DNA of 63,804 bases, from the NCBI GenBank assembly GCA_013286315.1, contig JABDFX010000009.1, forward strand, positions 347 through 64,150, written 5' to 3'. This DNA is from Bacteroidota bacterium (lineage in GTDB: Bacteria > Bacteroidota > Bacteroidia > Chitinophagales > Chitinophagaceae). Positions 4,441 to 63,041 of this stretch are shown here, one piece after another. The number at the start of each line of letters is the position of its first letter. Position 1 is the first letter of the stretch. The notes under the pieces were generated by a model. The model searched no databases. It had not been told where the DNA came from and saw only the letters and a list, made by a program, of their open reading frames with translations. The position numbers and the translations under genes are program-made.

Positions 4441-4514
4441 TATTAGTTATTAGTTATTAACGGTGGACGTCGTTGATGGAAAAGGCCTCCCGCCTCCCGC
4501 GTCCCGCCTCCCGC
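4441..4514. repeat. Heptamer arrays between adaptor and pump genes
   Basis: Two short arrays with a 7-bp period share this intergenic stretch. Bases 4441-4461 hold TATTAGT, TATTAGT, TATTAAC. Bases 4484-4514 hold about four degenerate CCTCCCG units. On the minus strand the second array starts directly after the TAG stop of the adaptor gene and reads GGCGGGA in that gene's sense. It belongs to the 3'-end heptamer family seen across the window. Confidence 0.75.
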
Positions 4515-5600
4515 CTACTTCAGGCTCGCAAACTGTACAACGGAACCGGGCATTAACCGCAATAAATTGCTGGTCACAACCGTATCTCCTTTATGTAAAC
4601 CGTGTAAAACTTCTACCGCATAGGGCCCGCGTTGACCGATTTCGATGGCAGCCAATTGAACCTGGTTACTTTTTACTGTATAGACGCTATATCCCTGTGA
4701 AGAAGGGATCAATGCCTGGGATGAAACCATCAATGCGTCGGCGGTCGAGTGCATGGACAGCTGCATTCTGGCGCTTTGCCCGGCAAGCAGAACCCTTCCG
4801 GGATTCTGACTTACGGCCCTGATCAAAAGGGTTCTTGTACTCTGATCCACCCCTGCTTCCCGCGCTATCACTTTGGCACTGTATTGTTTTGTATCGGAAG
4901 CCACCGTGAATTTCTGCTGGCTTCCGGTTAGAATGGTCTGTGCATATTTTTCAGGCACGTGGAAATCCAATTTGACCATGCTATTATCCTGAAGATGTGT
5001 AAGTACCGTATTTGCGGAAACCACGGCTCCCGGGTATACACGAACGATGCCCAGCTGACCGCTGAATGGTGCCCTGATCCTGGTTTTATTTATCAAAACC
5101 TGTAGTTCGGTAATCTGTGCTTCCAGAACTTTCAGGTTGGTAAAAGATTGATCATAGTCCTGCTGTACGACTGCTTCATGCTGGATGAGATCACGGAGGC
5201 GTTCTTCATTTAATCTCGCTAATTTTTCCTGCTGGTGAAGTTTTTCCAGTTGGGCCAGCAGGTCGGCATTGTCCATTTCAAAGAGTACCTGACCGGTTGT
5301 AACCGATGCTCCGTCTTTTACGTTGATCCGGATGATCTTCCGGGGAAGTTCGCTGACGATGTCCACTTCCTGGTTGGGTTCCAGGGTACCGGTGATTTCC
5401 AGTTCATCGTTTAAGACGGCCGGTTTTACAATGTATCCATCGACGGGTACACCCGGGGAAACCCGCGGAGCGGTAACAACGGGTTTAGCCTTTTCTTCTG
5501 CCTTGGCGTAACAGCCGCCGATCAACATGATAGAGAAATATGCAAGGGCGGCCAGTAAAGGGCTGCTGATTAAGTTTCTGGTGATGGTTTGTGTTGACAT
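4515..5600 (-). CDS. RND efflux periplasmic adaptor (membrane fusion protein), lipoprotein
   Basis: 361 residues, typical for an HlyD/AcrA-type adaptor. The N-terminus has a hydrophobic stretch ending in LIGGC, a lipobox that would lipidate Cys30. Residues about 50-100 form the first biotinyl-lipoyl half (GYIVKPAVLNDELEITGTL). A helical hairpin rich in Glu, Leu and Gln follows at about 110-165, then the second lipoyl half (TRIRAPFSGQLGIVRVYPGA), which is the family hallmark. A beta-barrel and membrane-proximal domain follow. It bridges the RND pump and TolC across the periplasm. It is the first structural gene after arsR (134 bp apart). Its last codon abuts a GC-rich heptamer array. Confidence 0.95.
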   Translation of the reverse strand: MSTQTITRNLISSPLLAALAYFSIMLIGGCYAKAEEKAKPVVTAPRVSPGVPVDGYIVKPAVLNDELEITGTLEPNQEVDIVSELPRKIIRINVKDGASVTTGQVLFEMDNADLLAQLEKLHQQEKLARLNEERLRDLIQHEAVVQQDYDQSFTNLKVLEAQITELQVLINKTRIRAPFSGQLGIVRVYPGAVVSANTVLTHLQDNSMVKLDFHVPEKYAQTILTGSQQKFTVASDTKQYSAKVIAREAGVDQSTRTLLIRAVSQNPGRVLLAGQSARMQLSMHSTADALMVSSQALIPSSQGYSVYTVKSNQVQLAAIEIGQRGPYAVEVLHGLHKGDTVVTSNLLRLMPGSVVQFASLK

Positions 5601-5695
5601 GGTGATGATTATTAATAGATATATTCAAATATTTCAATATAATTAATCGTAGGTATCCATTGAGTGTAACAAAAAAGAAAGAATAAAGTTATAGA

Positions 5696-5721
5696 TTTAT
5701 TTAAGTATTTCGATAAATAAA
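5696..5721. promoter_or_regulatory. Candidate ArsR operator copy upstream of the adaptor gene
   Basis: TTTATTTA (5696-5703) and TAAATAAA (5714-5721) form an inverted repeat. The right half TTCGATAAATAAA (5709-5721) is the exact reverse complement of TTTATTTATCGAA at 6039-6051 upstream of the arsR gene. AT-rich dyads of this kind are typical ArsR/SmtB sites. Its place between arsR and the adaptor suggests a second promoter for the efflux genes. This is inference from sequence symmetry only. Confidence 0.5.
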
Positions 5722-5734
5722 GATAAAATTTTTT

Positions 5735-6010
5735 TTAAATCTTCAGTCCTTCAATAAATCGTATATACTCGTCCATCAGTTTATTGTTCAGGTAATAACG
5801 CACATTCCGCCCCTCTTTATCAGACGTAACCAATTCACTTTCAATTAATAGTTTCAGGTGATGGGCAATCGAAGGCTGGGCGAGGTTCAATGTATTATTC
5901 AAATCCACACAATAGAGGCATTGTCTGCTCTTCTTGATTTCCTTCAGGATGGTCAGCCGGTTGGGGTCGGCCAGTGCTTTGGAGATCTTTTCTGCTTTTT
6001 TCGCATCCAT
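5735..6010 (-). CDS. ArsR/SmtB-family transcriptional regulator
   Basis: 91 residues with the compact winged-helix fold. KALADPNRLTILKEI is the conserved ArsR alpha-1/alpha-2 start, and LAQPSIAHHLKLL is the recognition helix. The wing GRNVRYYLN follows. A Cys pair, QCLYCVDL (CxxC), lies near where ArsR carries its CxC metal site, so a thiol or metal sensor is possible; a redox or organic ligand cannot be excluded. It is first in a minus-strand cluster with adaptor, RND pump and TolC and probably represses it. An AT-rich dyad lies just upstream (6039-6068) with a matching half-site before the adaptor gene. Confidence 0.9.
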   Translation of the reverse strand: MDAKKAEKISKALADPNRLTILKEIKKSRQCLYCVDLNNTLNLAQPSIAHHLKLLIESELVTSDKEGRNVRYYLNNKLMDEYIRFIEGLKI

Positions 6011-6038
6011 ATAAATGAATTACGACGCAAATATATAA

Positions 6039-20373: not shown

Positions 20374-20470
20374 GATCCAGCCTGCGAATTCGACCTTTAG
20401 ATCCAGCCTGTGAATTCGATCTTTAGATCCAGCCTGTGAATTCGATCTTTGATCCAATCTACGAATTCGG
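20374..20470. repeat. 26-bp tandem repeat (4 copies) between rhamnosidase and receiver genes
   Basis: Four copies of a unit GATCCAGCCTGTGAATTCGA... at 20374-20399, 20400-20425, 20426-20450 (25 bp) and 20451-20470 (partial, diverged). Each contains GAATTC. The last copy overlaps the final codons and stop of the minus-strand receiver gene (20459). No ORF or hairpin explains it. The spacing of 26 bp is unlike the 7-bp arrays elsewhere in the window. Confidence 0.9.
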
Positions 20471-20878
20471 ATGCTGGCTTGTCTTCCAGTATTCAAAAAT
20501 GATCCTTAGCTGATCCTTTATATCTTTCATATTTTGGCCCTTCAGGAAAAATCCCTGGACGGTTAAATGCAAATATGCCTCATTGACATATTTTTTTTCA
20601 GCAGAAGTACTGTAAAATACAAATGGAATGGATTTCTTTTTCAGTCTCTCGTTTTGATCCAATTTGTTTTTGAATTCAAGACCGCTCATACCTGGCAAAT
20701 TCACATCACTGATGATGATGAATGGCTGCTCTTCATTATTATCTAAAAAATGATAAGCATCCGCAGGATTTATAAATGAAATCAATCGATTGGGAATATC
20801 GAGATCCGTCAAAACCTGGCTAAATATTACTGCATCATCCTCGTCGTCTTCTACCAGTACAATCGGGCCTGTAATCAT
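20459..20878 (-). CDS. Single-domain response regulator (Rcp1-like)
   Basis: 139 residues, CheY-like receiver only. Acidic pocket in VLVEDDEDDA, acceptor Asp in IIISDVNLPGMSGLEF, switch Ser/Thr in FYSTSAEKK, conserved Lys in FFLKGQN. This resembles the Rcp1 type that pairs with bacteriophytochrome or PAS kinases encoded elsewhere. It has no neighbour in the same direction. Its C-terminus (HPNS, stop) is written by the last copy of the 26-bp tandem repeat, so the end of the protein has probably changed recently. It probably shuttles phosphate in a phosphorelay. Confidence 0.92.
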   Translation of the reverse strand: MITGPIVLVEDDEDDAVIFSQVLTDLDIPNRLISFINPADAYHFLDNNEEQPFIIISDVNLPGMSGLEFKNKLDQNERLKKKSIPFVFYSTSAEKKYVNEAYLHLTVQGFFLKGQNMKDIKDQLRIIFEYWKTSQHPNS

Positions 20879-21022: not shown

Positions 21023-21031
21023 ATATAAATT

Positions 21032-22658: not shown

Positions 22659-22697
22659 AAGGCTTTACGCGTTACGCGTTATGCTTTTAGCTTTTAA
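22659..22697. repeat. Heptamer array after the KAS III gene
   Basis: On the minus strand the sequence reads AAAAGCT, AAAAGCAT, AACGCGT, AACGCGT, AAAGCC immediately after the TAA stop of the KAS III gene (22694). It lies between that gene and the convergent hydrolase gene and follows the usual gene-sense orientation. Confidence 0.75.
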
Positions 22698-29840: not shown

Positions 29841-29878
29841 GCGTTAAGCGTTACGCATTAAGCGTTAGACGTTAAGCC
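29841..29878. repeat. Heptamer array downstream of the small membrane-protein gene
   Basis: GCGTTAA, GCGTTAC, GCATTAA, GCGTTAG, ACGTTAA units (plus strand), i.e. TTAACGC-type units in the sense of the minus-strand gene at 29899, starting about 20 bp after its stop. Confidence 0.75.
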
Positions 29879-33268: not shown

Positions 33269-33417
33269 AACATTTCTTTTTGGTTATATACAACTGATCA
33301 ATTTTTTTGCCAGCTGATATTTAGTAACATGAACGATTAAAAAGGAGCCTTACGGGTAGCATTTTCTACAAAAGAAATGGTTGACGGCTTTGCCCATCAT
33401 AGCTTTATTGGAGGTGG

Positions 33418-33461
33418 GTTGGCGGTTGGCGGTTGACAGTTGACGGTTGACGGTTGACGGA
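33418..33461. repeat. GGTTGAC-class heptamer array
   Basis: Six 7-bp units: GGTTGGC, GGTTGGC, GGTTGAC, AGTTGAC, GGTTGAC, GGTTGAC. On the minus strand they read GTCAACC. It is a third sequence class with exactly the same period as the AACGCTT arrays and is 30 bp from one of those (33489-33518). Confidence 0.85.
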
Positions 33462-33488
33462 GGAGAGATGCATAAAGCATGGCAGAAA

Positions 33489-33518
33489 GCGTTAAGCGTT
33501 AAGCGTTGAGCGTTCAGC
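33489..33518. repeat. GCGTTAA-class heptamer array, overlapping a gene end
   Basis: GCGTTAA, GCGTTAA, GCGTTGA, GCGTTCA units. They overlap the 3' end of the minus-strand gene at 33492 and encode its last residues (ERSTLNA). Confidence 0.85.
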
Positions 33519-33707
33519 TTTCTTCAGTTCCTTCAGGAAAAACGAATAACACTTACTTAACAACTGGCTGTAAGAGCTGTGTTCAAAACTGGTGAAGCTT
33601 CCTGTACTTTTATCCACCAGGGTTAGTTTCAAAAGATTTTCTTCTTCCATGGAAAGTGCCAGATCGTATTTTAATAAAATCTGTTTTAGTTTGGTGGTGT
33701 TTCGCAT
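33492..33707 (-). CDS. Small protein of unknown function
   Basis: 71 residues. Amphipathic helices (TTKLKQILLKYDLALSMEE, SYSQLLSKCYSFFLKELKKA) separated by a strand-rich centre (LLKLTLVDKSTGSFTSF). No signal or known motif. The last six to seven residues (RSTLNA) come from a 7-bp repeat array, so the native C-terminus was probably shorter or different. Divergent from the DUF2252 gene. Coding likelihood is moderate. Confidence 0.5.
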   Translation of the reverse strand: MRNTTKLKQILLKYDLALSMEEENLLKLTLVDKSTGSFTSFEHSSYSQLLSKCYSFFLKELKKAERSTLNA

Positions 33708-33765: not shown

Positions 33766-34986
33766 ATGGACAATTGCTTTAAGAGAATAGAATTATTTAA
33801 TCAGGGCCGCATTCCGGATATGCTGCGGGTGAAATATAAACTGATGGAGGGAGATACCTTCCGTTTCTTCAGGGGATCCAATCATTTGTTTTTTGAAGAT
33901 CTTGCCGGTAATAATCCCTTACCGCCTTCACCGATTTCCTGGCTTTGCGGGGATCTTCATTTGGAAAACTTCGGCAGTTTCAAAGGGGACAACAGATTGG
34001 TTTATTTTGATATGAACGATTTTGACGATGCCCTGCTCGGCCCGGCCGTTTATGATGTGGCACGGCTGGTTTGCAGCCTATTCATTGCATTCGAATCTCT
34101 GAAAATTGAAGAGGATAAAGCGATCAACATGGGAAAACTGTTTCTGAAGATTTATTCAGAAACCCTGGAGAAAGGTAAAGCGCGTTATATTGAGCCACAA
34201 ACTGCCAAAGGCATTGTATACAAATTTCTTTCTGTTGTTAGTAAACGAAAAGACAAACAGATACTCAGGAAAAGAACAGTCAGAAAAAAAGACAGCATAG
34301 CCATTTTGCTCGCACATCCCCGTCATTTCGCTTTAGATGCCGGATTAAAAAAGGAATTAATTACTTACCTGAACGATTGGTTACAAAATAACAGTTATAC
34401 GCCTTATAATTTTGATGTTCAGGATGTCGCTTTTCGCATGGCCGGTACCGGTAGTCTGGGTTTGAAAAGATATCTCTTTCTGTTACAAAGCAAAAACCGG
34501 GAAAGTAAACACATGTTGATGGAGATGAAACAATCAGTTGAGCCGGCCCCCAAGAAATATATTAAGATGCAGCAACCGCAATGGGTATCAGAGTCAGAAC
34601 GTGTGGTGAATATTCAGCAGCGGATGCAAAATATACCACCGGCTTTACTGAGTTTCAGCGATTTCAGAAACGAGTCCTATATGATCCAGGAAATGCAACC
34701 AACTAAGGACAGTTTTAATTTTAAACTGGTCAGGGACGCTTACCGGGACTTATACCAGGTTATCCACGACATGGGTCTATTAACGGCCTCCGCACAAATA
34801 AGAAGTTCGGGCTGGAAAGGAGCTTCTGTAGTAGATGAGCTAAGTGCTTTTGGCGGAAATAAACAATGGCAGGATTCAGTCCTTGATTTTGCCAGGATAT
34901 ATAGCCAGATCGTTAAGAAAGATTATTTGGAATTTTGCCAGGCAATGAAAGACACAAAAGCCCAAAGCCTAAAGCCCAAAGCCTAA
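33766..34986 (+). CDS. DUF2252-family protein (kinase-like fold)
   Basis: 406 residues. The DUF2252 pattern is clear: FRFFRGSNHLFFEDL, SWLCGDLHLENFG (HxxN catalytic-loop-like) and YFDMNDFDDALLGPAVYDVARL (metal-binding Asp-rich loop), with RLVCSL continuing. This places it in the aminoglycoside-phosphotransferase-like kinase clan. Substrate unknown. The C-terminal residues (AQSLKPKA) and the stop are read from a heptamer array (AAAGCCTA units), so the end of the protein has drifted. It stands alone. Confidence 0.9.
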   Translation: MDNCFKRIELFNQGRIPDMLRVKYKLMEGDTFRFFRGSNHLFFEDLAGNNPLPPSPISWLCGDLHLENFGSFKGDNRLVYFDMNDFDDALLGPAVYDVARLVCSLFIAFESLKIEEDKAINMGKLFLKIYSETLEKGKARYIEPQTAKGIVYKFLSVVSKRKDKQILRKRTVRKKDSIAILLAHPRHFALDAGLKKELITYLNDWLQNNSYTPYNFDVQDVAFRMAGTGSLGLKRYLFLLQSKNRESKHMLMEMKQSVEPAPKKYIKMQQPQWVSESERVVNIQQRMQNIPPALLSFSDFRNESYMIQEMQPTKDSFNFKLVRDAYRDLYQVIHDMGLLTASAQIRSSGWKGASVVDELSAFGGNKQWQDSVLDFARIYSQIVKKDYLEFCQAMKDTKAQSLKPKA

Positions 34987-35073
34987 AAGCCTAAAGCCAA
35001 ACTATATCACATAGCGTAACGCCAAACTATATCACATAGCGTTAAGCGTTACGCATTAGGCGTTAGGCTTAAG
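34957..35073. repeat. Heptamer array with 25-bp duplication after the DUF2252 gene
   Basis: Starts with AAAGCCC/AAAGCCT units that still encode the end of the DUF2252 protein, then a 25-bp tandem pair (34996-35020 and 35021-35045, GCCAAACTATATCACATAGCG core), then GCGTTAA and GGCGTTA units to 35073. The stretch to the permease start at 35204 holds nothing else I can call. Confidence 0.85.
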
Positions 35074-37618: not shown

Positions 37619-37626
37619 TTTACACC

Positions 37627-37746
37627 CAACGCCTAACGCCTTACGCTTAAAGCCTCAAGCTTCAAGCCTCCTGCCTCCTGCCTCCCGCCTCCTGCCTCCT
37701 GCCTCCTGCCTCCCGCCTCCCGCCTCCTGCCTCCCGCCTCAGGCTT
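37627..37746. repeat. Mixed heptamer array between permease and DsbA-like genes
   Basis: On the plus strand it begins AACGCCT, AACGCCT, TACGCTT, AAGCCTC-like units next to the permease stop and turns into about 13 GCCTCCY units ending at GCCTCAGGC. The second part, read on the minus strand, is GAGGCGGGAGGCAGG right after the DsbA-like stop. The array thus joins two gene ends and shows the two heptamer classes can sit in one array. Confidence 0.9.
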
Positions 37747-38837: not shown

Positions 38838-38933
38838 AAGCCTAATGTTTAAGGCTAAGGCTTAAGGCTAAGGCCAAGGTTTAAGGTTTAAAGCATCGTT
38901 AAGCGTTACGCGTTACGCGTTAAGCTTAAAGGG
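38838..38933. repeat. Heptamer array after the second permease gene
   Basis: On the minus strand, 4 bp after the permease stop: AAGCTTAACGCGTAACGC then AACGCTTAACG, then a run of degenerate CCTTAAG/GCCTTAG units up to 38838. The array lies between the permease end and the peroxiredoxin start. Confidence 0.85.
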
Positions 38934-46322: not shown

Positions 46323-46460
46323 AAGCGGGAGGCAGGAAGCGGGGGGCAGGAAGCGGGAAGCAGGAAGCTGGATGCAGGAAGCTGGAAGCAGGAAGCTGGA
46401 GGCTTGCTGTCGGAGCCTCATGCCTCCTGCCTCCTGCCTCACGCCTGCTCACGCTTGCTC
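46323..46460. repeat. Heptamer arrays between tRNA-Pro and the nitrilase gene
   Basis: A long array of AAGCRGGAGGCAGG-like 14-bp double units (46323-46402) is followed, after a short spacer, by inverted GCCTCCT/GCCTCAC units (46422-46460). The second part reads GGCAGGA in the sense of the nitrilase gene and supplies that gene's final codons (Glu-Gln-Ala-stop). The two halves could pair into a long hairpin. Confidence 0.9.
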
Positions 46461-47399
46461 AAGCCAGGAAACTCTTTGTTCTGCGTGATGTGCTTTTCCA
46501 ATGATATCCTTGTAGAGTTCCGGTCTCCGGGCCTTCATATAGCGGTATCCACCTGCGAGTTTTAGCTTTTCTTCATTTAAGGTTGCCATCACAAATTCAT
46601 CTGAAAAACTCCTGCATTCCGCCAGAATATCCCCATAAGGATCCAAAATTATGGAACAGCCATTTTTTAGCTGATCGTCGTCCATGCCGATCGGATTTGA
46701 AAATATGGCGTATAAAGCATTGTCATACGCGCGGGCCGGCAGCCATTTCATCAGCCAGGCTCTGCCTTTAAGGCCGTCAAATTCCATTCGCAAAGACGTC
46801 GGATCTGTCTCCCGGTTTTTCCATAACGCAGGATCAACAAATCCTGCTCCGGGCCTGGTAGATGGTGTGCACATAGTGACATGGGGCATGAATATAATGT
46901 CCGCACCTAACAACTTTGTCGCCCGCACATTTTCGATGATATTATTATCGTAGCAGATCAGAATTCCGGCTTTCCATCCTCTCAGATCGAAGACAGTATA
47001 TTCATTTCCCGGAAGAATATGTTTGTTTACGAAGGGGTGCAATTTGCGGTGTTTGGCCAGCATACCGGTCTTATCAACACATACATACGCTTTATAAATA
47101 TCACCGAGCTCGTCTTTTTCAAAGAGACCCGCAAGGACTATGATTTTGTTTTTCTCTGCAATGGATTGCAATCGTTGAATACTCTCACCATCCGGAATGA
47201 ATTCGCAAAGGTCAAACATTTGTCCGCGGGACAATTTTCTGGCAAAACTGTATCCGGTTATGGAGCATTCATGAAAGGCGATCGCGTCGGCGCCTGCCTC
47301 AGCGGCCTTTTTAGAGAGCCGGTCGATGACACTCAAATTATATTCTTTATCGCCGGATTTATTTTCAAACTGAGCAGTGGCAATTTTTATGTTTCGCAT
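46449..47399 (-). CDS. Carbon-nitrogen hydrolase (nitrilase superfamily)
   Basis: 316 residues. The triad is visible: E44 in AFHECSITGYSFA, K119 in KHRKLHPF and C149 in GILICYDNNIIE. The fold is aliphatic amidase/N-carbamoyl hydrolase-like; substrate cannot be set. No signal peptide, so cytoplasmic. Its last three residues come from an adjacent heptamer array. It stands alone on its strand; the hexuronate operon starts divergently 265 bp away. That 265-bp gap holds a promoter-like box for uxaA and nothing else I can call. Confidence 0.9.
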   Translation of the reverse strand: MRNIKIATAQFENKSGDKEYNLSVIDRLSKKAAEAGADAIAFHECSITGYSFARKLSRGQMFDLCEFIPDGESIQRLQSIAEKNKIIVLAGLFEKDELGDIYKAYVCVDKTGMLAKHRKLHPFVNKHILPGNEYTVFDLRGWKAGILICYDNNIIENVRATKLLGADIIFMPHVTMCTPSTRPGAGFVDPALWKNRETDPTSLRMEFDGLKGRAWLMKWLPARAYDNALYAIFSNPIGMDDDQLKNGCSIILDPYGDILAECRSFSDEFVMATLNEEKLKLAGGYRYMKARRPELYKDIIGKAHHAEQRVSWLEQA

Positions 47400-52423: not shown

Positions 52424-53749
52424 ATGAAATCTACGATACGGCAACCCATGGGCAGATACCGGTGGGTAGTGGTTAGTCTGCTTTTTTTTGCAACTACAAT
52501 CAACTACCTGGACAGGCAGGTGATTGGTTTGCTGAAAGATAATCTGGCAAAGGATTTCAGCTGGTCCGAAAAAGATTATAGCCGGATCGTGATGGCATTT
52601 TCAACTGCGTATGCCATTGCCCTGATGTTATTCGGTCGCCTGATTGATAAAATCGGGACCCGTCTGGGATATGCCATTTCTATTATCATATGGAGCGTAG
52701 CGGCGATGTTTCATGCACTGGCGACAGGAACCATCGGTTTCGGCATCGCGAGAACAGCCCTTGGTCTTGGCGAGGCAGGCAATTTTCCCGCTGCTATCAA
52801 AGCGGTGGCCGAATGGTTTCCAAAAAAAGACAGGGCGCTGGCTACCGGAATTTTCAACAGCGGAACCAATGTGGCAGCTATCATCGGTCCGCCGCTGATT
52901 GCATTGATTTTTTCTAATTATGGATGGCAGGAAGCATTTGTCTGGACGGGTTCGCTTGGGTTTATCTGGTTGATTTTCTGGTGGTGGTTGTACGAGGTTC
53001 CTTCCAGACAAAAAAAAATTACGAAGGAAGAATTCGAATACATCCATAGCGATCAGGATGAAGATATAAAGGATCGATCTCAAAAGCCGGGATGGTCGGG
53101 ATTATTTCGCCTGAGACAAACCTGGGCCATTATATTTGGAAAATTCCTGACGGATCCTGTCTGGTGGTTTTATCTTTTCTGGATTCCTTCCTATTTTAAC
53201 AGCACCTATCATTTGAATCTGACGAGCTCGGCCATTCATGTTTCCACCGTTTATATCGTAGCGAGTTTTGGAAGTATACTGGGTGGATATTTATCCGGAT
53301 GGCTGATCAGAAGAGGAATCCCGATTTATAAAGCGAGGAAATATTCCATGTTCATTTTTGCCTGTTGTGTGGTCCCCATTTTTTTTGTCAGATATACGAA
53401 TGGCATCTGGCCCGCTGTCTGGCTGATCAGTATGGCAGCTGCTGCTCACCAGGCATGGAGTGCGACGATTTATACAGTGGCCGGTGATATGTTTCCCAAA
53501 AAAATTCTGAGCTCGGTGATCGGAATCGGTGGCATGGCCGGGTCTGCGGGTGGCATTCTTTTTCCTTTTCTGATTGGAATCATACTTGATCATTTCAAAT
53601 TATTGGGTGCATTGGGCACAGGATACAATATTATTTTTGGTATTTGTGCCGGTGCGTATTTACTCGCCTGGGGTATCATGCAGTTACTTTATAAACCGGA
53701 GATTAGTGTGGTGAATGTGGAAGCCACCCTTCCACATCCACCACACTAA
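52424..53749 (+). CDS. exuT: MFS hexuronate transporter (ExuT/GudP-like)
   Basis: 441 residues, 12 predicted TMs. Motifs: TINYLDRQVIGLLKDNL, GRLIDKIGTRLGYAIS (MFS loop 2-3), ARTALGLGEAGNFPAAIKAVAEWFP (anion/carboxylate family signature), and SVIGIGGMAGSAGGILFP. It imports hexuronates with H+. It directly follows eda with no gap. Its last 15 codons (VVNVEATLPHPPH) and stop are read from a palindromic element (53704-53747), so the C-terminal tail is probably not ancestral. Symbol given by function and operon context. Confidence 0.88.
   Translation: MKSTIRQPMGRYRWVVVSLLFFATTINYLDRQVIGLLKDNLAKDFSWSEKDYSRIVMAFSTAYAIALMLFGRLIDKIGTRLGYAISIIIWSVAAMFHALATGTIGFGIARTALGLGEAGNFPAAIKAVAEWFPKKDRALATGIFNSGTNVAAIIGPPLIALIFSNYGWQEAFVWTGSLGFIWLIFWWWLYEVPSRQKKITKEEFEYIHSDQDEDIKDRSQKPGWSGLFRLRQTWAIIFGKFLTDPVWWFYLFWIPSYFNSTYHLNLTSSAIHVSTVYIVASFGSILGGYLSGWLIRRGIPIYKARKYSMFIFACCVVPIFFVRYTNGIWPAVWLISMAAAAHQAWSATIYTVAGDMFPKKILSSVIGIGGMAGSAGGILFPFLIGIILDHFKLLGALGTGYNIIFGICAGAYLLAWGIMQLLYKPEISVVNVEATLPHPPH
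53704..53747. repeat. Palindromic element B2 inside the transporter 3' end
   Basis: AGTGTGGTGAATGTGGAAG (53704-53722) and CTTCCACATCCACCACACT (53729-53747) form a 19-bp inverted repeat with one mismatch and a 6-bp loop. It is a minimal copy of the B1/B3 family. It encodes the C-terminal tail of the MFS transporter, and the stop TAA starts at its last base. Confidence 0.88.
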
Positions 53750-53771: not shown

Positions 53772-55079
53772 ATGAATGATTTTATCGCGGCCCGCTCCCA
53801 AATGGCGCTGTCGCTGGCATTTCATATTATCTTTTCCTGTATCGGAATGGTCATGCCTTTTTTTATGGCCGTGTCACACTATTATTATTTGAAAACAGGG
53901 AAAACCGTTTTCCGCAACATCACAAAAGCCTGGAGCAAGGGAGTAGCCATTTTTTTTGCAACCGGCGCGGTTTCAGGTACGGTACTTTCTTTTGAACTCG
54001 GATTATTGTGGCCCGTTTTTATGAAAAATGCCGGACCCATATTCGGATTACCGTTTTCACTCGAAGGGACTGCCTTTTTTATTGAAGCCATCGCCCTTGG
54101 ATTTTATTTGTATGGCTGGGGGAAATTCAACAAATGGTTTCATTGGTTCACCGGCGTTGTGGTTGGAGTCAGTGGATTGATTTCCGGCATTCTGGTAGTT
54201 GCAGCGAATGCCTGGATGAACAGTCCGGCAGGTTTTGAATTTGCGGATGGGAAATATTTCAATATCGATCCGGTGAAAGCGATGTTCAATGATGCATGGT
54301 TTTCGCAGGCCCTGCACATGTGTCTGGCGGCTTTTGTGGCCACAGGATTTGCTGTTGCCGGGGTGCATGCACTGATGGTGGTAAAAAGAAAAAATATCGA
54401 ATTCCATACAAAATCTTTTCGAATTGCAGCGCTGTTTGCCTGCGTAGCCGCGCTCCTGCAACCCATCAGTGGTGATCACTCTGCCAAAGATGTTGCACAT
54501 CGTCAGCCGGCTAAACTGGCTGCAATGGAAGCTGTTTTTGAAACAGGAACCCATGTTCCTTTGTTGATCGGCGGCATTCCGGATGAAAAAACAGGCCAGA
54601 TAAAATATGGATTTGAAATACCCGGCATGCTCAGCTTCATGATCAGTGGTAATACAAACACTGAAGTGAAGGGACTCGATCAGTTCGCGTTAGCTGACCG
54701 GCCACCGGTGCTTATTACGCATATCGCATTTCAGATCATGGTTGGGCTGGGTATGTGTATGTTCGCTGTGAGTATTTTATATTTTTTTGTTTTATGGAAG
54801 AAGCGAAACTTCGAAAAAAATCTTTGGCTTCTGAAGTTATTCGCCCTATCCACACCGCTGGGTTTTATGGCCGTGGAAGCCGGATGGGTCGTTACAGAAG
54901 TGGGCCGTCAGCCCTGGATCCTGCACGGCATTTTGCGAACGAGAGACGCCGTTACCCCGATGCCGGGAATTCAATATACTTTTTATCTTTTTACACTTAT
55001 TTATATTTCACTGGCCGTCGTGGTCACATTGCTTTTATACAGACAGATAAAAATGGTTCCTGTCAAGTATGACATTTAA
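53772..55079 (+). CDS. cydA: Cytochrome bd ubiquinol oxidase subunit I
   Basis: 435 residues from MNDFIAARSQ (53772); the longer frame from 53715 overlaps the MFS stop and lacks sense. His18 in MALSLAFHIIFSC is the b595 ligand position. ALHMCLAAFVATGFAVAGVHAL carries the b558 His, and GWVVTEVGRQPWI is the TM with the conserved Gly-Arg-Gln. The quinol loop is short (HRQPAKLAAMEAVFETGT...), typical of the CIO/short-loop type. It reduces O2 with quinol without proton pumping, for low O2. cydB follows 254 bp later. A 60-bp stretch from its last codons is duplicated downstream. Confidence 0.93.
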   Translation: MNDFIAARSQMALSLAFHIIFSCIGMVMPFFMAVSHYYYLKTGKTVFRNITKAWSKGVAIFFATGAVSGTVLSFELGLLWPVFMKNAGPIFGLPFSLEGTAFFIEAIALGFYLYGWGKFNKWFHWFTGVVVGVSGLISGILVVAANAWMNSPAGFEFADGKYFNIDPVKAMFNDAWFSQALHMCLAAFVATGFAVAGVHALMVVKRKNIEFHTKSFRIAALFACVAALLQPISGDHSAKDVAHRQPAKLAAMEAVFETGTHVPLLIGGIPDEKTGQIKYGFEIPGMLSFMISGNTNTEVKGLDQFALADRPPVLITHIAFQIMVGLGMCMFAVSILYFFVLWKKRNFEKNLWLLKLFALSTPLGFMAVEAGWVVTEVGRQPWILHGILRTRDAVTPMPGIQYTFYLFTLIYISLAVVVTLLLYRQIKMVPVKYDI

Positions 55080-55328
55080 GCGAAACGCTTAACGCTTAAC
55101 GCGTAACGCATTAAGGTTCCTGTCAAGTATGACATTTAAGCGAAACGCTTAACGCTTAACGCTTAACGCGTAACGCATTAATTTGAAAATGTAGAAATGT
55201 ATTGTGTAACGCGTAACGCATTAATTTGAAAATGTAAAAATGTATTGCGTAACGCGAAACGCGTAACGCGTAAATTTGAAGATATAAAAATGTATTGCGT
55301 TACGCGTCACGCGTTATGCTTTAAGCCC
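55055..55328. repeat. Heptamer array and tandem duplications between cydA and cydB
   Basis: 55055-55114 and 55115-55181 are direct copies of a 60-bp unit that includes the last eight codons and stop of cydA; the second copy has one more 7-bp unit (CGCTTAA). After it come three units of about 44-50 bp, each containing ATTTGAAAATGTA, ATGTATTG and then AACGCGT-class heptamers, up to the cydB start at 55334. No gene fits in the space. Confidence 0.92.
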
Positions 55329-55333
55329 GAAGG

Positions 55334-56347
55334 ATGGTTTATATAGTTATTGCTTATTTATGGACAGCCATTTTACTTTATCTGCTTCTGGGCGGAGCTG
55401 ATTTTGGTGCGGGCATTATCGAGCTGTTTACGTCAGACGATAATAAGATCAAAACATCTGTGAAAATGTCACGTACGATCGGACCGATCTGGGAAGCTAA
55501 CCATATGTGGCTGATCATCGTGATCGTTATTTTATTTACCGGCTTTCCGGATATTTACGCATCAGTATCAACCTATCTGCATATTCCTTTATTAATCATG
55601 CTCATGGGAATTATTGCAAGAGGTACTGCTTTTGCATTCCGTCACTATGATGCGGTTGAAGATTTTATGCAGGCCGTCTATAATAAAATATTCCGTTATT
55701 CCAGTTTTATAACTCCATTTTTTCTTGGCATCATTGCGGCCAGCGCAGTTTCAGGCACTATCAACCCGGATGCAAAGGGTTTTGCTGATGCCTATATTTT
55801 TTCATGGCTGCATTTTTTTTCAATTTCGGTTGGATTGTTTACAGTATGCATTTGTGGATATCTGGCAGCGATTTTTTTGATCGGTGAAACCGAAACACCT
55901 GAAGAACGCAGGCGATATATTGTTAAAGCCAGATCCATGAATATAGCAGCGGTTATTTCGGGAGCGCTTGTTTTTCTCGCTGCGGCCCATGATCATGTGC
56001 CACTGACCAAATGGTTGTTTGGAAATCCCGTGGGTATAGCAGCTATCGCAGCCGCCATTGCTTCATTGATTTTGCAATGGATCCTGATACGGCATGGGCA
56101 GAAAATAATTATTCGTATGCTGGCCGGATTCCAGATTACCATGCTGCTGGTAGCAACCACATTATTTCATTACCCAAAGATTATTTTATTTTCAGGAGAA
56201 CGATATCTTTCATTATTGGAACATCATGGGGATGATAAGGCCATCGAGTCCCTCGCCATGGCATTACTGATTGGAAGCTTATTTATTTTGCCTGCGCTTT
56301 TTTATCTCATCTACAGCTTTCAGAAAAAACAGCCAGGCGAAGTTTGA
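55334..56347 (+). CDS. cydB: Cytochrome bd ubiquinol oxidase subunit II
   Basis: 337 residues. VYIVIAYLWTAILLYLLLGGADFGAGIIELF is the first membrane segment with the Gly-Ala-Asp-Phe-Gly motif of CydB; EANHMWLIIVIVILFTGFPDIYASVS is typical second. Eight to nine TMs in all. It pairs with CydA to form the oxidase. The two genes are separated by a 254-bp repeat block rather than the usual short gap, so they may be separately controlled or the RNA may be processed there. No CydX or CydDC is seen here. Confidence 0.94.
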   Translation: MVYIVIAYLWTAILLYLLLGGADFGAGIIELFTSDDNKIKTSVKMSRTIGPIWEANHMWLIIVIVILFTGFPDIYASVSTYLHIPLLIMLMGIIARGTAFAFRHYDAVEDFMQAVYNKIFRYSSFITPFFLGIIAASAVSGTINPDAKGFADAYIFSWLHFFSISVGLFTVCICGYLAAIFLIGETETPEERRRYIVKARSMNIAAVISGALVFLAAAHDHVPLTKWLFGNPVGIAAIAAAIASLILQWILIRHGQKIIIRMLAGFQITMLLVATTLFHYPKIILFSGERYLSLLEHHGDDKAIESLAMALLIGSLFILPALFYLIYSFQKKQPGEV

Positions 56348-56497
56348 ACGCTTAACGCGTAACGCTTAACGCATTAAGTGCAACATGGACATTTTAAAAT
56401 GTAAATATGTATTGCTTTAAGCTTCGCATAAGCGTTACGCATTACGCGTTAAGCATAAAGCGTTACGCGTTCCGCGTTACGCGTTAAGCGTTAAGTG
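56348..56497. repeat. Heptamer arrays between cydB and the VWA gene
   Basis: AACGCTT, AACGCGT, AACGCTT, AACGCAT units follow the cydB stop on the plus strand, then an ATTTTAAAATGTAAATATGTATTGC stretch similar to the cydA-cydB block. On the other side GCGTTAAGC-type units run up to the VWA gene's stop. Each gene thus has an array in its own sense, making a convergent pair. Confidence 0.9.
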
Positions 56498-58288
56498 TTA
56501 TTGTTCCTCAACAACTTTTTTCTTCTTCTTGTCCTTATGATAAATTTTCCTTGCTTTTTCAATCAGCTGGATGTATTCAGTTTGTGATACGTCACTGGAT
56601 TCATAGCTTGCTTTGGCTATCAGGGAAAGTTCATCCCAACTGGTTTTTGCAGTATAAGAGGATTTTTTCAGCAGTCCTCCGAACAACGCAACGGAGGCGG
56701 AAAAACGGTAGTAATTCGGAAGATCCGCAAAGGGCACAAAGTGATAGGCCACGTCAAATTCCTCCAGATGGTTGATATTTTCAACGGGCAACTGGTAATG
56801 CATTCTCATTTTAGCAAAAGGAACAGTATGAAATGTATTCACTGTTTCCAATTGCACAGGATCTATTTCTATCAGGGCCATCAACGAATGTCCGGATCCG
56901 ATTTCACCTCCCTGTAATACATTCAACGTGTCCTCCAATGCGCTTGCCTTGTTATCAAAACCGATCAGGCGATAGCTTTTAACGACAGCCGGATCAAAAC
57001 GGATATCGATATATGCATCTTTTGCAACAGCGTAAATAGTTTGTGCAAATTCCTGCATCAAAACTTTTTCGGCTTCCTTCTCATTGTCCAGGTAGGCAAA
57101 ATTTCCTTTGCCCTGGTTGGCCAGTACTTCCAGTTTTGAATCTTTATAATTTCCCATGCCAACGCCCAAACACGTGAGATAAATTTCAGAGGAACGGTAG
57201 CTATTGATGAGTTGATTGAGCTCTTCCTCTGATTGCTGACCCACATTAAAATCTCCGTCTGTTGCGAGGATCACACGGTTGGTGCCGCCCTTGATAAAAG
57301 TGCTTTTTGCCAGCTGGTAAGCTGCGCGAATGCCGCCCTCCCCGGGTGTAGATCCGCCGGCTTCCAGTTGCGCAATGGACTCAAGAATTTTCTTTTTTTC
57401 CGCCCCGCTGGTTGGCGTAAGCCATACTCCGTTCACACCGCCATAGACTACAATGGAAACTGTATCCATCTGACGAAGGTTATTGATCATGAGGCTGAAT
57501 GCGGATTTTAACAGGGGCAACCGGTTCGGCAGGTCCATCGAGCCGGATACATCGATCAGGAAAACAAGATTGGCCGGCGGGATACTATCCAGCCTTGCTT
57601 TTTTTGCGCAAATATTTAAGAACAGTAACTCGTGCGCGGCATTCCAGGGGCAGGAAGAAATAATCGACTGGTAGTTAAAAACACTGTCGTAACCCGGCTC
57701 AGTATAATGAATGTTGAAGTAGTTCATCATTTCTTCCAGACGAATGGCATCCGGAGGAACGATATTATCCAGATTGATAAAGCGCCGGATATTACTATAA
57801 GAAGCTTTATTGATATTGATGGCAAAGCCCGTTTCCGGATATTCATCAGCCGGTATGAATGGGTTTTCGAGTAGTGAGCTATAGGTCTCCGCACCAACGG
57901 TCCAGCGGTTTCTCATCTCTGACGACAGGTTCCTGGTTAAAGACCATAACCGGTTTGAAGGTTTTGGTGGCGGAGCAAAACGTGCTTTAAGAGTGATCGT
58001 TTGATATTTATCTGCATTTACGGCGACTATATTGGTGTAAAATCCATCAGCGACAATGGTCATGGTATCCAGTGCCCGTGGAATGGTGATACCAAAGCCG
58101 CCCATGGATCCGGAATAGTATAAGTACTCGCTGGACTGGAGCCGGATTTTTACATTGCTGACGGGATTTTTCTGTTCATCCCTGATTTCGCCCCGGAGAT
58201 AGTATTGTCCATGGCCCTGCAGGCAGGTGCATAAGGCTATACATATGGTTAGCACGGTTTTCAAATAGAATATATTGGTTACGGGCAA
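56498..58288 (-). CDS. VWA-domain protein (YfbK-like) with CarboxypepD-like N-domain
   Basis: 596 residues with a signal or anchor (NIFYLKTVLTICIALCTC). Residues about 30-100 are a carboxypeptidase-regulatory-like beta domain (YLRGEIRDEQKNPVSNVKIR). A von Willebrand N-terminal segment follows (ENPFIPADEYPETGFAININKASYSN split), then the VWA domain at about 240-400 with MIDAS FLIDVSGSMDLPNR, Thr, and VILATDGDFNVG. A DUF3520-type C-terminal region ends in a Lys-rich tail. YfbK-type proteins are exported and bind partners through the metal-dependent site. Role is unknown. It ends at a heptamer array shared with cydB. Confidence 0.9.
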   Translation of the reverse strand: MPVTNIFYLKTVLTICIALCTCLQGHGQYYLRGEIRDEQKNPVSNVKIRLQSSEYLYYSGSMGGFGITIPRALDTMTIVADGFYTNIVAVNADKYQTITLKARFAPPPKPSNRLWSLTRNLSSEMRNRWTVGAETYSSLLENPFIPADEYPETGFAININKASYSNIRRFINLDNIVPPDAIRLEEMMNYFNIHYTEPGYDSVFNYQSIISSCPWNAAHELLFLNICAKKARLDSIPPANLVFLIDVSGSMDLPNRLPLLKSAFSLMINNLRQMDTVSIVVYGGVNGVWLTPTSGAEKKKILESIAQLEAGGSTPGEGGIRAAYQLAKSTFIKGGTNRVILATDGDFNVGQQSEEELNQLINSYRSSEIYLTCLGVGMGNYKDSKLEVLANQGKGNFAYLDNEKEAEKVLMQEFAQTIYAVAKDAYIDIRFDPAVVKSYRLIGFDNKASALEDTLNVLQGGEIGSGHSLMALIEIDPVQLETVNTFHTVPFAKMRMHYQLPVENINHLEEFDVAYHFVPFADLPNYYRFSASVALFGGLLKKSSYTAKTSWDELSLIAKASYESSDVSQTEYIQLIEKARKIYHKDKKKKKVVEEQ

Positions 58289-60569: not shown

Positions 60570-60764
60570 ATGTGGTGAATGTGGAAGGTGGGGAATGTGG
60601 GAATTCAAAGTGGAGTGTACTAATGACAGTGTGGTCGTGTGAGATTTTTGACGATAAATAGCAAAACCCAGCGGGGCGAAAGTATTGTCCCACACTTCTA
60701 CATTATCATTAGTACACTCCACTTTGAATTCCCACATTTCTCACCCTTCCACGTTCACCACACT
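60570..60764. repeat. Palindromic element B3 between O-methyltransferase and symporter genes
   Basis: 195 bp. Left arm starts TGTGGTGAATGTGGAAGG, right arm ends CCTTCCACGTTCACCACA. Internal arms match for about 70 bp, including GGGAATTCAAAGTGGAGTG and its complement, around a loop with CCCAGCGGGGCGAAAG. The right end includes the symporter gene's stop codon region (60763-60765). No ORF inside. Best copy of the family. Confidence 0.9.
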
Positions 60765-62211: not shown

Positions 62212-62296
62212 GCCTGGATGTGAAATTAGTGATTGAAAATTAGGAAATGCAATATTAAAATTTCAATTTTAATAGTTCTCTCAACGTCAACATTCT

Positions 62297-62836
62297 ATGA
62301 ATATTGAATCCGTAGCCGTTTTTTGCGGTTCCCACAGTGGAAAAAATCCTTTGTTTACTGAACATGTCAAAGAGCTTGGCAAACTGCTGGCCATGCTAAA
62401 AGTCAAACTGGTTTATGGGGGTGGGCATAAAGGGCTGATGGGCACATTGGCTGATTCGGTACTGGCGCACGAAGGCCGTATCATGGGCATCATTCCTGAA
62501 TTACTGATCGAATGGGAAGTGCAGCACAAGGGACTTACCGAGCTCGCGGTTGTTCCGGATATGCATACCCGTAAGAAAATGATCTATGATCATTGCGACG
62601 CCGTGATTGTGCTGCCGGGTGGTTTTGGAACCATGGATGAATTATTTGAAATCCTTACCTGGAACCAGCTCAAGATCCATCACAAGAAAATTTATATTCT
62701 CAATTCAGACGGATTTTATAATCATCTGCAGAAACATATCAACCAAATGAAGAAGGAAGGTTTCCTGCAGGATGACCTGTTGGAGTCGATTTATTTCTGT
62801 CATACACCGATTGAGCTTTTCAACAAGATCAGCTGA
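62297..62836 (+). CDS. LOG-family nucleotide 5'-monophosphate phosphoribohydrolase
   Basis: 179 residues. VAVFCGSHSGKNPLFTEH, VYGGGHKGLMGTLAD (nucleotide loop) and the signature VLPGGFGTMDELFEILTWNQL (PGGxGTxxE) with preceding HTRKKMIYD. It cleaves the N-glycosidic bond of nucleoside monophosphates, producing ribose 5-phosphate and base, and may make cytokinin-like bases. The stop TGA lies within a 21-bp perfect hairpin (62818-62862). It is divergent from the SSS gene. Confidence 0.94.
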   Translation: MNIESVAVFCGSHSGKNPLFTEHVKELGKLLAMLKVKLVYGGGHKGLMGTLADSVLAHEGRIMGIIPELLIEWEVQHKGLTELAVVPDMHTRKKMIYDHCDAVIVLPGGFGTMDELFEILTWNQLKIHHKKIYILNSDGFYNHLQKHINQMKKEGFLQDDLLESIYFCHTPIELFNKIS

Positions 62837-62862
62837 TTAAAAATCAGCTGATCTTGTTGAAA
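62818..62862 (+). terminator. Perfect 21-bp hairpin spanning the LOG gene stop
   Basis: Left arm 62818-62838 (TTTCAACAAGATCAGCTGATT), loop AAA (62839-62841), right arm 62842-62862 is its exact complement. The left arm includes the last five codons and stop. It is very stable and likely stops transcription; no T-run follows. The right arm runs directly into element B4. Confidence 0.85.
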
Positions 62863-62998
62863 GTGTGGTGAACGTGGAAGGGTGGTGAATATGGGAATTC
62901 AAAATGAAATGTGGTAATGACAATATGCTGATGTGTTTTTCCATCCCACACGTGCGGGATCATTTCCTTTTTAGCTTTCACATTCTTACCCTTCAGGA
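62862..62998. repeat. Palindromic element B4 (degenerate right end)
   Basis: Left arm AGTGTGGTGAACGTGGAAGG and an inner GGGAATTCAAAATGAAATGTGG match B1 and B3. The right side keeps the inner part (ATCATTTCC... and CATTCTTACCCTTC) but lacks the terminal TTCACCACACT. A decayed member of the family. A hairpin GATCCCGCACGTGTGGGATG-like sits in its middle. Confidence 0.75.
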
Positions 62999-63007
62999 CT
63001 CCTTTAT

Positions 63008-63041
63008 ACGCGTTAAGCGTTATGCGTTAAGCGTTCGGCTT
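63008..63041. repeat. Heptamer array after the outer membrane protein gene
   Basis: ACGCGTTAAGCGTTATGCGTTAAGCGTTCGGC: GCGTTAA, GCGTTAT, GCGTTAA, GCGTTCG units on the plus strand, i.e. TTAACGC units in the sense of the minus-strand gene, about 10 bp after its stop. Confidence 0.8.

What the first reader, a model, noticed from the sequence alone, without database searches (positions are those of the whole stretch)
4441..63041. A family of 7-bp repeat arrays placed at gene 3' ends across the window
About fifteen arrays share a strict 7-bp period but several sequence classes: AACGCTT/AACGCGT, AAGCCTA, GGCGGGA, CCGTCAA, TATTAGT. Most start at or within roughly 20 bp of a stop codon. In gene sense they keep orientation: AACGC/AAGCC/GGCGGGA after the gene, for plus and minus genes alike (22659, 29841, 33489, 34957, 37627, 38838, 46422, 55055, 56348, 63008, 4484). 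Convergent pairs carry two arrays facing each other (56348-56497; 37627-37746). Known heptamer repeats exist in cyanobacteria, but this gene-end linkage with mixed classes is not one I can name. Roles might be RNA end processing, stability, or selfish expansion.
Basis: partly seen in the sequence, partly recalled or inferred. Interest (0 to 1): 0.75.

Follow-up and report, generated by a model that had tools for sequence, protein, structure and literature searches.

The report
Fast-changing tandem repeats at gene ends
This bacterium carries many short 7- or 8-letter DNA repeats placed right where genes end, often as mirror-image pairs, and a related species has repeats at the same gene ends but spelled differently, which suggests that place and shape last longer than the sequence.

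Summary
In detail: 18 period-7 arrays in the window, none in 20 shuffles. In 464 kb of its genome (apparently Bacteroidota) and 400 kb of a same-genus genome, arrays concentrate at gene 3' ends: about 5.5 per kb between convergent genes, 2.8 tandem, 1.0 divergent. They sit at the stop codon in one orientation (106 to 8, 14 undecided) and often supply the stop. Stems show no RNA-specific compensation (G·U 66, A·C 65). I read them as DNA-level repeats, made by slippage and arm-to-arm copying, that live at gene ends; a termination or insulation role is possible but unproven. Xanthomonas GGGAATC heptamers (PMC4692102) share most of the layout, so this is a new variant of a known kind.

The parts
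4431..4459 (-). (TTAGTTA)n array, 2 bp upstream of the start codon of gene 1303-4428 (-); not at a gene end
4485..4516 (-). gene-sense AGGCGGG-type array overlapping the stop codon of gene 4515-5600 (-)
   Evidence: in same-genus genome G007 the orthologous pair is 2 bp apart
22662..22696 (-). AACGCGT-type array overlapping the stop of gene 22694-23767 (-)
   Evidence: lone array, RNA fold of 22632-22696 z -0.35
29841..29874 (-). AACGC-type array 24 bp past the stop of a small predicted ORF 29899-30108 (-), weakly supported
33417..33460 (+). GGTTGAC-type array between divergent predicted genes
33487..33522 (-). AACGCTT-type array (plus strand reads AAGCGTT) between divergent predicted genes
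34957..35001 (+). AAAGCCT-type array that begins 30 bp before the end of gene 33766-34986 (+) and covers its stop codon
35038..35068 (-). array in inverted orientation to 34957-35001
   Evidence: RNA fold of 34984-35073 z -5.51
37622..37740 (+). composite array between convergent genes that shifts AACGCCT to AAAGCCT to GCCTCCT in one register; flush with both stops (37618 and 37739)
   Evidence: RNA fold z -0.45
38838..38891 (-). AAGCCTT-like array with mixed periods beside 38897-38931
   Evidence: Tandem Repeats Finder, periods 13, 6 and 19; below my lag-7 threshold
38897..38931 (-). AACGC-type array 4 bp past the stop of gene 38936-41344 (-)
46325..46404 (+). AGGCAGG-type array, 5' arm of an inverted pair
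   Evidence: RNA fold of 46323-46446 z -4.47
46415..46446 (-). inverted partner, 2 bp past the stop of gene 46449-47399 (-)
55084..55109 (+). AACGCTT array 4 bp past the stop of gene 53772-55079 (+)
55144..55176 (+). AACGCTT array in the second copy of a 60-bp tandem duplication (55055-55169, 98% matches) that includes the gene's 3' end
55247..55273 (+). further AACGCGT array in the same intergenic region
   Evidence: an inverted repeat 55147-55180 / 55293-55326 spans the region
56347..56372 (+). AACGCTT array touching the stop of gene 55334-56347 (cydB-like, +)
56429..56500 (-). inverted partner array overlapping the stop of the convergent gene 56498-58288 (-)
   Evidence: RNA fold of 56345-56494 -61.5 kcal/mol, z -5.57
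63007..63035 (-). AACGCTT-type array 8 bp past the stop of gene 63044-63595 (-)
   Evidence: in G017 this site has 67 bp, no array over threshold, but short octamer-like stretches by eye

Best explanation
A lineage-specific family of tandem arrays, often palindromic, at gene 3' ends. Units of 7 or 8 nt are repeated mostly 3-6 times. Arrays start at or inside the stop codon, which they often supply, and in over half of cases an array with a matching unit in inverted orientation lies in the same intergenic region. Shown: placement, polarity, pairing with matched units, stop codons that follow the unit, and retention of site and mostly of period, but not of unit letters, between two related species. 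Inferred: arrays grow by replication slippage, and inverted arms copy each other by template switching on DNA, so the unit drifts in concert while the site persists. Also inferred: they stay at 3' ends because they do least harm there, and any benefit (transcription insulation or termination by a hairpin) does not depend on the unit letters. I put the chance that such a benefit is real at about one in three.
For: Density follows the number of gene 3' ends: convergent 5.1 and 5.9 per kb, tandem 2.9 and 2.7, divergent 1.1 and 1.0 in G000 and G017. Edges within 15 bp of a stop: 69 against 34.6 expected and 60 against 28.4; of a start: 14 against 17.1 and 16 against 14.4. Orientation near stops 113:15 by class labels, 106:8 with 14 ties by a label-free rule; 81:0 (75:0 label-free, 9 ties) when an opposite array is present; held-out 42/47 and 32/36. 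Inverted partner beats all 40 controls in 131 of 231 arrays. Of 78 outermost pairs 42 have units within one letter of each other in inverted sense; shuffled mean 10.0, maximum 20 of 2000. Arms in one region are more alike than same-class arms elsewhere (43 pairs, p = 1e-4). 67 syntenic regions G000/G017: both 14, one only 4 and 1, none 48; among those of 50 bp or more in either, 14/4/1/29, p = 8e-8. At the 14 shared sites a common period in 13 (68% at random, p = 0.03), octamers in both 6, one only 2, neither 6 (p = 0.01), yet units within one letter in only 1 of 14 (19% at random) and a mean unit distance of 2.23 against 2.25. Stop codon follows unit: TAA 55/62, TGA 10/12, TAG 20/48 in three groups of classes, against 56%, 29%, 15% background (groups formed after seeing the table). 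G·U 66 and A·C 65 in 45 tandem-gene array stems fit shaping at the DNA level.
Against: Slippage and template switching were not seen happening. The test of mirrored unit order gave no signal (71 pairs, 0 with p below 0.05, overall p = 0.26). 61 of 139 array-bearing regions hold one array, and only 15 of those 61 have a significant inverted partner; for lone arrays the orientation bias is weaker (29:11; 3:4 where several arrays all point one way). Simple slippage does not explain why similar units recur at many loci that share little else. Against a benefit: where a relative lacks the array the genes are often nearly adjacent (10 of 14 such syntenic cases 67 bp or less; the others 122, 183, 186 and 961 bp), and array-bearing tandem regions hold the -7 promoter motif no more often than others (8/43 and 17/82; 11/60 and 30/125).
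Confidence: 0.5

Rival explanations
1. Purely neutral or selfish repeats: they expand wherever coding and promoter sequence permit, and gene 3' ends are simply the free space.
For: Lineage-specific load: AACGCKT doublets occur 92, 151 and 27 times in G000, G017, G015 but 0-2 times in the 30 other genus members searched. Array presence goes with longer spacers in most comparisons. No RNA signature.
Against: Free space alone does not predict the twofold excess at stops under random placement in the same region, the fixed polarity (81:0), nor the strong retention of sites between two species.
Confidence: 0.35
2. The arrays are functional transcription terminators or 3'-end stabilisers, kept by selection on RNA hairpins whose sequence drifts.
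For: Placement after stops and scaling with 3' ends; strong hairpins at paired sites (z -5.57, -4.47, -5.51: 3 of 10 stretches folded, two more at -2.2 and -2.6); canonical U-tract terminators avoid array-bearing ends (1 of 12 against 86/223 in G000; 4 of 24 against 71/182 in G017; p = 0.03 and 0.02); sites retained while units change.
Against: No excess of G·U over A·C in stems of tandem genes (66:65; power about 0.75 for a 62% share). Five of 10 window stretches fold no better than shuffles (z above -1). The avoidance of canonical terminators may only reflect taken space. Predicted terminators at convergent ends of array-rich genomes (0.04 and 0.13) are no scarcer than in several relatives, though scarcer than in others such as G007, 6 of 12.
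Confidence: 0.2
3. A mobile element of REP or MITE type carries the arrays.
For: Dispersed, intergenic, often palindromic, similar units at many loci. Some intergenic regions do share a palindromic sequence outside arrays.
Against: With arrays masked, 20 similar pairs among 243 regions in G000 and 4 among 207 in G017; 10 and 2 of these involve an array-bearing region, but only 2 and 0 join two of them. The REP-associated transposase family Y1_Tnp has no hit in G000, G015 and G017, while 23 of 33 genus genomes have one; the three MAGs are 59-77% complete, and close relatives G005 and G007 lack it too.
Confidence: 0.05
4. Sequence-specific function (G-quadruplex or a binding protein), as considered for Xanthomonas heptamers.
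For: Some classes are G-rich (AGGCAGG, AGTATGGG, GGGATAT).
Against: The largest classes (AACGCNT 64 and AAAGCNT 29 of 231 arrays) have no GGG in the reference unit, and the same gene ends carry clearly different units in two species.
Confidence: 0.04
5. Artefact: arrays hold stop codons in several frames, so an ORF caller ends genes at arrays wherever they lie.
For: Many units contain TAA, TAG or TGA and periods 7 and 8 shift the frame; stops follow the unit.
Against: Among 18 ortholog pairs with an array at one or both ends, unaligned C-terminal residues are 4 or fewer on both sides in 15. Classes whose reference unit has no stop codon are equally stop-flush (AAGTMTGG 11 sense to 0, AAGTCTGG 6 to 0).
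Confidence: 0.03

Closest known systems
GGGAATC / GGGGA(C/T)T heptamer arrays of Xanthomonas and Nostoc (Rehm et al. 2015, PMC4692102; abstract and passages seen)
   Same: Degenerate heptamer arrays, mostly within 50 bp of the stop on the sense strand, some over it; paired convergent arrays (70 cases in Xcc, 75 in Xac); few between divergent genes; mostly between the same genes in two species, with much length and sequence variation.
   Different: One G-rich unit type per genome there; here several unit classes of 7 and 8 nt, most not G-rich, with different unit letters at the same gene ends in two species and stop codons that follow the unit.
TAACTGA heptamer repeats of Beggiatoaceae, Cyanobacteria and some Bacteroidetes (MacGregor 2015, PMC4679880; abstract and passages seen)
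   Same: Intergenic heptamer arrays with a patchy spread; some overlap the stop of an upstream gene; in two Bacteroidetes other heptamers occur beside them and close relatives have shorter spacers without repeats.
   Different: One unit; in the main genome mostly just upstream of start codons; related heptamers rarely repeated there. No TAACTGA doublet in 478 kb of G000 and 811 kb of G017.
Long simple sequence repeats with heptamers in excess (Mrazek et al. 2007, seen only as described in PMC4679880 and PMC4692102)
   Same: [quoted passage not shown] polymerase slippage proposed.
   Different: No gene-end pairing or unit turnover described in what I saw.
REP elements and REP-associated transposases (PMC2817692, search listing only)
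   Same: Intergenic palindromes in high copy.
   Different: No hit to the transposase family in the array-rich genomes; little sharing outside arrays.
Intrinsic transcription terminators (recalled)
   Same: Hairpin after the stop codon, possible from both sides.
   Different: U-tract terminator found at only 5 of 157 array-bearing ends; arms are tandem arrays; no RNA compensation signal.
Tandem repeats of archaeal Borgs (PMC9879509, abstract start in a search listing only)
   Same: Fast-evolving tandem repeats across a genome.
   Different: No link to stop codons or inverted pairs in what I saw.

Membership tests
Xanthomonas-type gene-end heptamer arrays (PMC4692102) | tandem degenerate heptamers in intergenic regions | tested here: met
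   lag-7 arrays 95 intergenic and 2 coding in G000, 132 and 3 in G017; octamers in addition
[quoted passage not shown]
Xanthomonas-type gene-end heptamer arrays (PMC4692102) | paired arrays in convergent orientation | tested here: met
   131 of 231 arrays with a significant inverted partner; 42 of 78 outermost pairs within one letter
Xanthomonas-type gene-end heptamer arrays (PMC4692102) | G-rich, quadruplex-forming unit | tested here: not met
   by unit sequence only: AACGCNT 64, AAAGCNT 29, AATTGTY 19, GTTGRCG 19 of 231 arrays have no GGG in the reference unit
TAACTGA repeats (PMC4679880) | unit TAACTGA, just upstream of start codons | tested here: not met
   0 TAACTGA doublets; no excess near starts
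REP / RAYT elements | REP-associated tyrosine transposase (Y1_Tnp) in the genome | tested here: not met
   no hit in G000, G015, G017; 23 of 33 genus genomes have hits; the three genomes are 59-77% complete
REP / RAYT elements | conserved palindrome with a tetranucleotide guide | not tested
   recalled feature; no motif search made
MITEs | conserved sequence beyond the repeat arms | tested here: not met
   of 20 and 4 similar region pairs outside arrays, 2 and 0 join two array-bearing regions
Intrinsic terminators | stable hairpin just after the stop | tested here: inconclusive
   3 of 10 window stretches fold far better than shuffles; 57% of arrays have an inverted partner
Intrinsic terminators | U-tract after the hairpin | tested here: not met
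   U-tract terminator at 5 of 157 array-bearing ends (1 of 86 in G000, 4 of 71 in G017)
Intrinsic terminators | RNA-level compensation (G·U tolerated over A·C); my own criterion | tested here: not met
   66 to 65 in 45 tandem-gene array stems
Cyanobacterial STRR heptamers | specific heptamer units used for typing | not tested
   recalled; AACGC/AAAGC arrays in 26 Brasilonema loci are not stop-linked (4 of 21 within 25 bp of a stop)

The most novel reading that the evidence does not exclude
The cell has an active process that writes and rewrites short tandem arrays at gene 3' ends: it sets both arms together in fixed polarity and replaces the stop codon with one from the unit, so that a gene end is a persistent slot whose place and period are kept while its spelling changes quickly between species.
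Probability: 0.12. Interest if true: 0.88.

Novelty: new variant of a known kind. Interest (0 to 1): 0.6.

Why it matters
Heptamer arrays have been noted in bacteria for years without an agreed role, and the Xanthomonas case was framed as G-quadruplex DNA. Here the same layout appears with units that mostly lack G runs, and two related species keep the array at the same gene ends with different letters. That moves the question from 'what does this sequence bind' to 'what makes and keeps a mirrored tandem array at a stop codon', and gives many natural replicates to test it.

Tried and rejected
Mobile element: regions compared all against all with arrays masked, Y1_Tnp searched in 33 genus genomes; both mostly against. 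RNA-compensation test, first on a smaller set (tandem G·U 52, A·C 47) and then on the enlarged set (66 and 65); null both times. Mirrored unit-order test: null. Operon-boundary test by the -7 promoter motif TAnnTTTG (motif recalled): no difference. Loss of canonical terminators in array-rich genomes: unclear, my predictor finds few in most of these genomes. Further genome pairs gave too few syntenic regions: both species with arrays in 0 of 8, 0 of 2 and 0 of 13 (G000 with G005, G007, G015), 1 of 10, 1 of 15 and 0 of 8 (G017 with G005, G007, G015). A first reading, that whole unit classes are exchanged at random between species, did not survive: at 13 of 14 shared sites the period is common; I lowered the novel-case probability from 0.15 to 0.12 for that. 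Naming ten window genes, most of them beside arrays, showed no common theme (RND pump, FabH-like, ADOP permeases, nitrilase-like, cydB-like; two without a family).

Limits: G000 sample = window plus 20 stretches of contigs C1-C6, plus 13.8 kb from then on. G017 sample = 20 stretches, several chosen because AACGC arrays were listed there, so its array density is biased upward; 20 further stretches entered and three more. Of 129 and 121 arrays of lag 7 or 8, 122 and 111 lie in regions of 50 bp or more and 231 of these 233 were classified; the rest were dropped from class counts. Class labels are fuzzy: 68 of 237 lag-7 arrays tie between reference units, so orientation, pairing and site comparisons were redone without labels. 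The '+' orientation of each reference was set after looking at hairpins; the held-out test and the best-per-class null (115 of 128, null maximum 95 of 5000) address that. Genes are from my own ORF caller. Shared and unshared sites depend on the score threshold; at least two 'unshared' G017 sites hold short octamer-like stretches by eye.
Full report
WHAT WAS CHECKED. The window (63,804 bases) is contig C9:347-64150 of a 3.3-Mb, 202-contig genome, 58.8% complete, here G000. In array-free tandem regions of G000 the Bacteroidota -7 motif TAnnTTTG (recalled) occurs in 17 of 82 in the gene direction and 2 of 82 in reverse, which fits that phylum. Same-genus genome G017 has contig lengths equal to those of JABDDT01, titled 'Bacteroidetes bacterium'. 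The family was not established. Genes were called with my own dicodon-based ORF caller.

A lag-7 scan finds 18 arrays in the window and none in 20 shuffles. Ten of the 18 overlap or lie within 10 bp of a stop codon; one more lies 24 bp from the stop of a small predicted ORF; two (33417, 33487) lie between divergent genes; one (4431) lies just upstream of a start; four lie farther out in regions that also hold a stop-flush array.

GENOME-WIDE PLACEMENT. In 464 kb of G000 and 400 kb of G017, arrays of period 7 or 8 occur in 22 of 39 and 22 of 35 convergent regions of 50 bp or more, 46 of 145 and 32 of 112 tandem ones, and 11 of 59 and 7 of 60 divergent ones. Edges lie within 15 bp of a stop twice as often as under random placement in the same regions (69 against 34.6, 60 against 28.4); near starts there is no excess (14 against 17.1, 16 against 14.4). 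The distance of the nearest array edge to the stop peaks between -5 and +5 bp; on the start side it is diffuse. In intergenic DNA of G000 the periods are 7 (95), 8 (32) and 11 (8), with at most 3 for any other lag from 4 to 12. Most arrays hold 3-6 copies, the longest about 30.

POLARITY AND PAIRING. Sixteen reference units, chosen by me, cover 231 of 233 arrays in regions of 50 bp or more. Within 15 bp of a stop 113 arrays have the reference orientation and 15 the other. With orientation learned in one genome and tested in the other the score is 42 of 47 and 32 of 36. If an opposite array is present in the region the count is 81:0, for lone arrays 29:11, and 3:4 where several arrays all point one way. 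Because 68 of 237 lag-7 arrays tie between reference units, I repeated this without labels: 106:8 with 14 ties, and 75:0 with 9 ties where an opposite array is present. 131 of 231 arrays have an inverted partner better than all 40 controls, about 2% being expected. Of 78 regions with two or more separate arrays, the outermost ones carry the same label in 44 (shuffled mean 9.3) and units within one letter of each other, in inverted sense, in 42 (shuffled mean 10.0, maximum 20 of 2000). A separate inverted-repeat scan finds 46 repeats in G000 and 42 in G017; 28 and 32 of these have arms of period 6-9, nearly all 7 or 8. Often, then, the object is a palindrome whose arms are tandem arrays: one leaves the gene end, and its mirror image lies before the next gene.

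STOP-CODON CAPTURE. Where arrays are flush with the stop, the stop codon follows the unit: TAA in 55 of 62 for AACGC, AAAGC and AAGGC units, TGA in 10 of 12 for two GTTG units, TAG in 20 of 48 for five of the six octamer units, against 612, 315 and 159 of 1086 genes (the groups were formed after seeing the table). The array unit itself often serves as the stop. Proteins are mostly not truncated: in 15 of 18 ortholog pairs with an array at one or both ends, at most 4 C-terminal residues are unaligned on either side.

SITE AND PERIOD KEPT, LETTERS CHANGED. G000 and G017 orthologs have a median identity of about 80%. In 67 syntenic intergenic regions, 14 have arrays in both species, 4 only in G000, 1 only in G017, 48 in neither; with at least 50 bp in one species it is 14, 4, 1, 29 (p = 8e-8). 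By my labels 3 of the 14 share a class, 18% being expected for random pairs. Without labels, 13 of 14 have a common period (68% at random, p = 0.03), and octamers are present in both species at 6 sites, in one at 2, in neither at 6 (p = 0.01); given a common period the units differ by 2.23 letters on average, random pairs by 2.25, and only 1 of 14 is within one letter (19% at random). So place and period carry memory, the letters do not. Examples read by eye: AAGTATGG palindrome against AGTATAAG palindrome (L151:8538 / L266:9039), AAGTATGG against AGTGTGAG (L153:1357 / L303:9650), and one change of period, octamer against AACGC heptamer (L151:15239 / L266:4459). At window 60531 G000 has an irregular palindrome, G017 an AACGC pair and G005 a GTTG pair. 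Where one species lacks a detected array that the other has (14 cases over all genome pairs in which G000 or G017 has it and the other genome is the one lacking it, the reverse G017-only case against G000 not counted), its spacer is 67 bp or less in 10 and 122, 183, 186 and 961 bp in the others. At least two such G017 sites still hold short octamer-like stretches below my threshold.

DNA OR RNA? If stems were kept for RNA pairing, G·U should outnumber A·C in the transcript sense between tandem genes. They are equal: 66 and 65 in 45 array stems; convergent 29 and 37; divergent 16 and 11. With this sample a 65% G·U share would have been seen with 92% power. The mirror symmetry therefore looks more like a product of DNA copying. 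Arms in one region resemble each other slightly more than same-class arms elsewhere (43 pairs, p = 1e-4), which fits local copying; the order of variant units is not significantly mirrored (71 pairs, p = 0.26). Three paired stretches of the window would form strong RNA hairpins (z -5.57, -4.47, -5.51); of the other seven stretches folded, two reach -2.2 and -2.6 and five stay above -1.

DISTRIBUTION. AACGCKT doublets: 92 in G000, 151 in G017, 27 in G015, and 0-2 in the 30 other genus members searched. AGTRTRRG doublets: 104, 371 and 1, and 0-1 in the others; in G017 the backward control also matches 80 times, so that count is partly low complexity. I examined 100 of these (leaving out the 11 of JABDDT01), grouped by title. 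Arrays within 25 bp of a stop: Chitinophagaceae 5 sense, 0 anti (5 loci); uncultured Gammaproteobacteria 1 sense, 12 anti (11 loci, 16 arrays); Prevotella 2 and 3; Brasilonema 3 and 1 of 21 arrays; Sulfurovum 1 and 0; other Bacteroidota 0 and 1; Nitrospirae and Cytophagales none; remaining taxa 3 and 8 of 28 arrays. The same heptamer thus follows different placement rules in different lineages. Y1_Tnp, the family that serves REP elements, has no hit in the three array-rich genomes.

COMPARISON WITH PRINT. Papers seen: PMC4692102 and PMC4679880 (abstracts and passages), PMC4060949 (passages). The Xanthomonas GGGAATC arrays share the stop-codon link, the inverted pairs and the site persistence with sequence variation. 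What I did not find in the held library is a system with several unit classes of 7 and 8 nt, turnover of the unit at orthologous gene ends in this form, or stop codons that follow the unit. That library lacks most subscription papers.

VERDICT. The anatomy is secure in the samples taken. The mechanism (slippage plus arm-to-arm template switching at the DNA level) is the most economical inference and is not shown. A unit-independent role in ending or insulating transcription is possible; for it speak placement and site retention, against it the missing RNA signature and the many gene ends and relatives that do without.

Noticed in passing
window 25871-26021, 53703-53749, 60587-60745, 62837-63044; L157:626 and L157:10297 regions: A dispersed, irregular palindromic sequence around TAGTGTGGTGAATGTGG, about 80-85% alike between copies, several of them close to gene ends; perhaps an older relative of the octamer arrays or a separate small element.
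   Followed up: partly
window 55055-55169: A 60-bp tandem duplication (98% matches) that includes the end of gene 53772-55079 and its first array: probably a recent duplication.
   Followed up: no
G017 L163:9527 and L163:10055: Two intergenic regions share 75 bp at 91% identity, with a weaker copy in L173: a possible small dispersed element of that genome.
   Followed up: no
L036, L045, L058, L069 (uncultured Gammaproteobacteria MAGs): AACGCTT arrays sit at stops in the orientation opposite to that in this genome (12 anti, 1 sense among 16 arrays in 11 loci of this group), apparently an independent case of gene-end heptamers.
   Followed up: partly
G002 locus L205: By eye, the convergent region next to the ortholog of window gene 56498 holds a degenerate AGCTGYR-like period-7 array with an inverted partner, although this genome has few arrays by my scan.
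   Followed up: no
window 35255-37618 and 38936-41344: Two genes matching the ADOP duplicated-permease family below its cut-off; a search with the first, and with a related L157 gene, gave about 20-60 hits in each of four related genomes.
   Followed up: no
window 20374-20469 and 20973-21027: 26-bp tandem repeats (3.7 copies, 90%; and 2.1 copies, 82%) near gene 20459-20878, of another kind than the 7-bp arrays.
   Followed up: no
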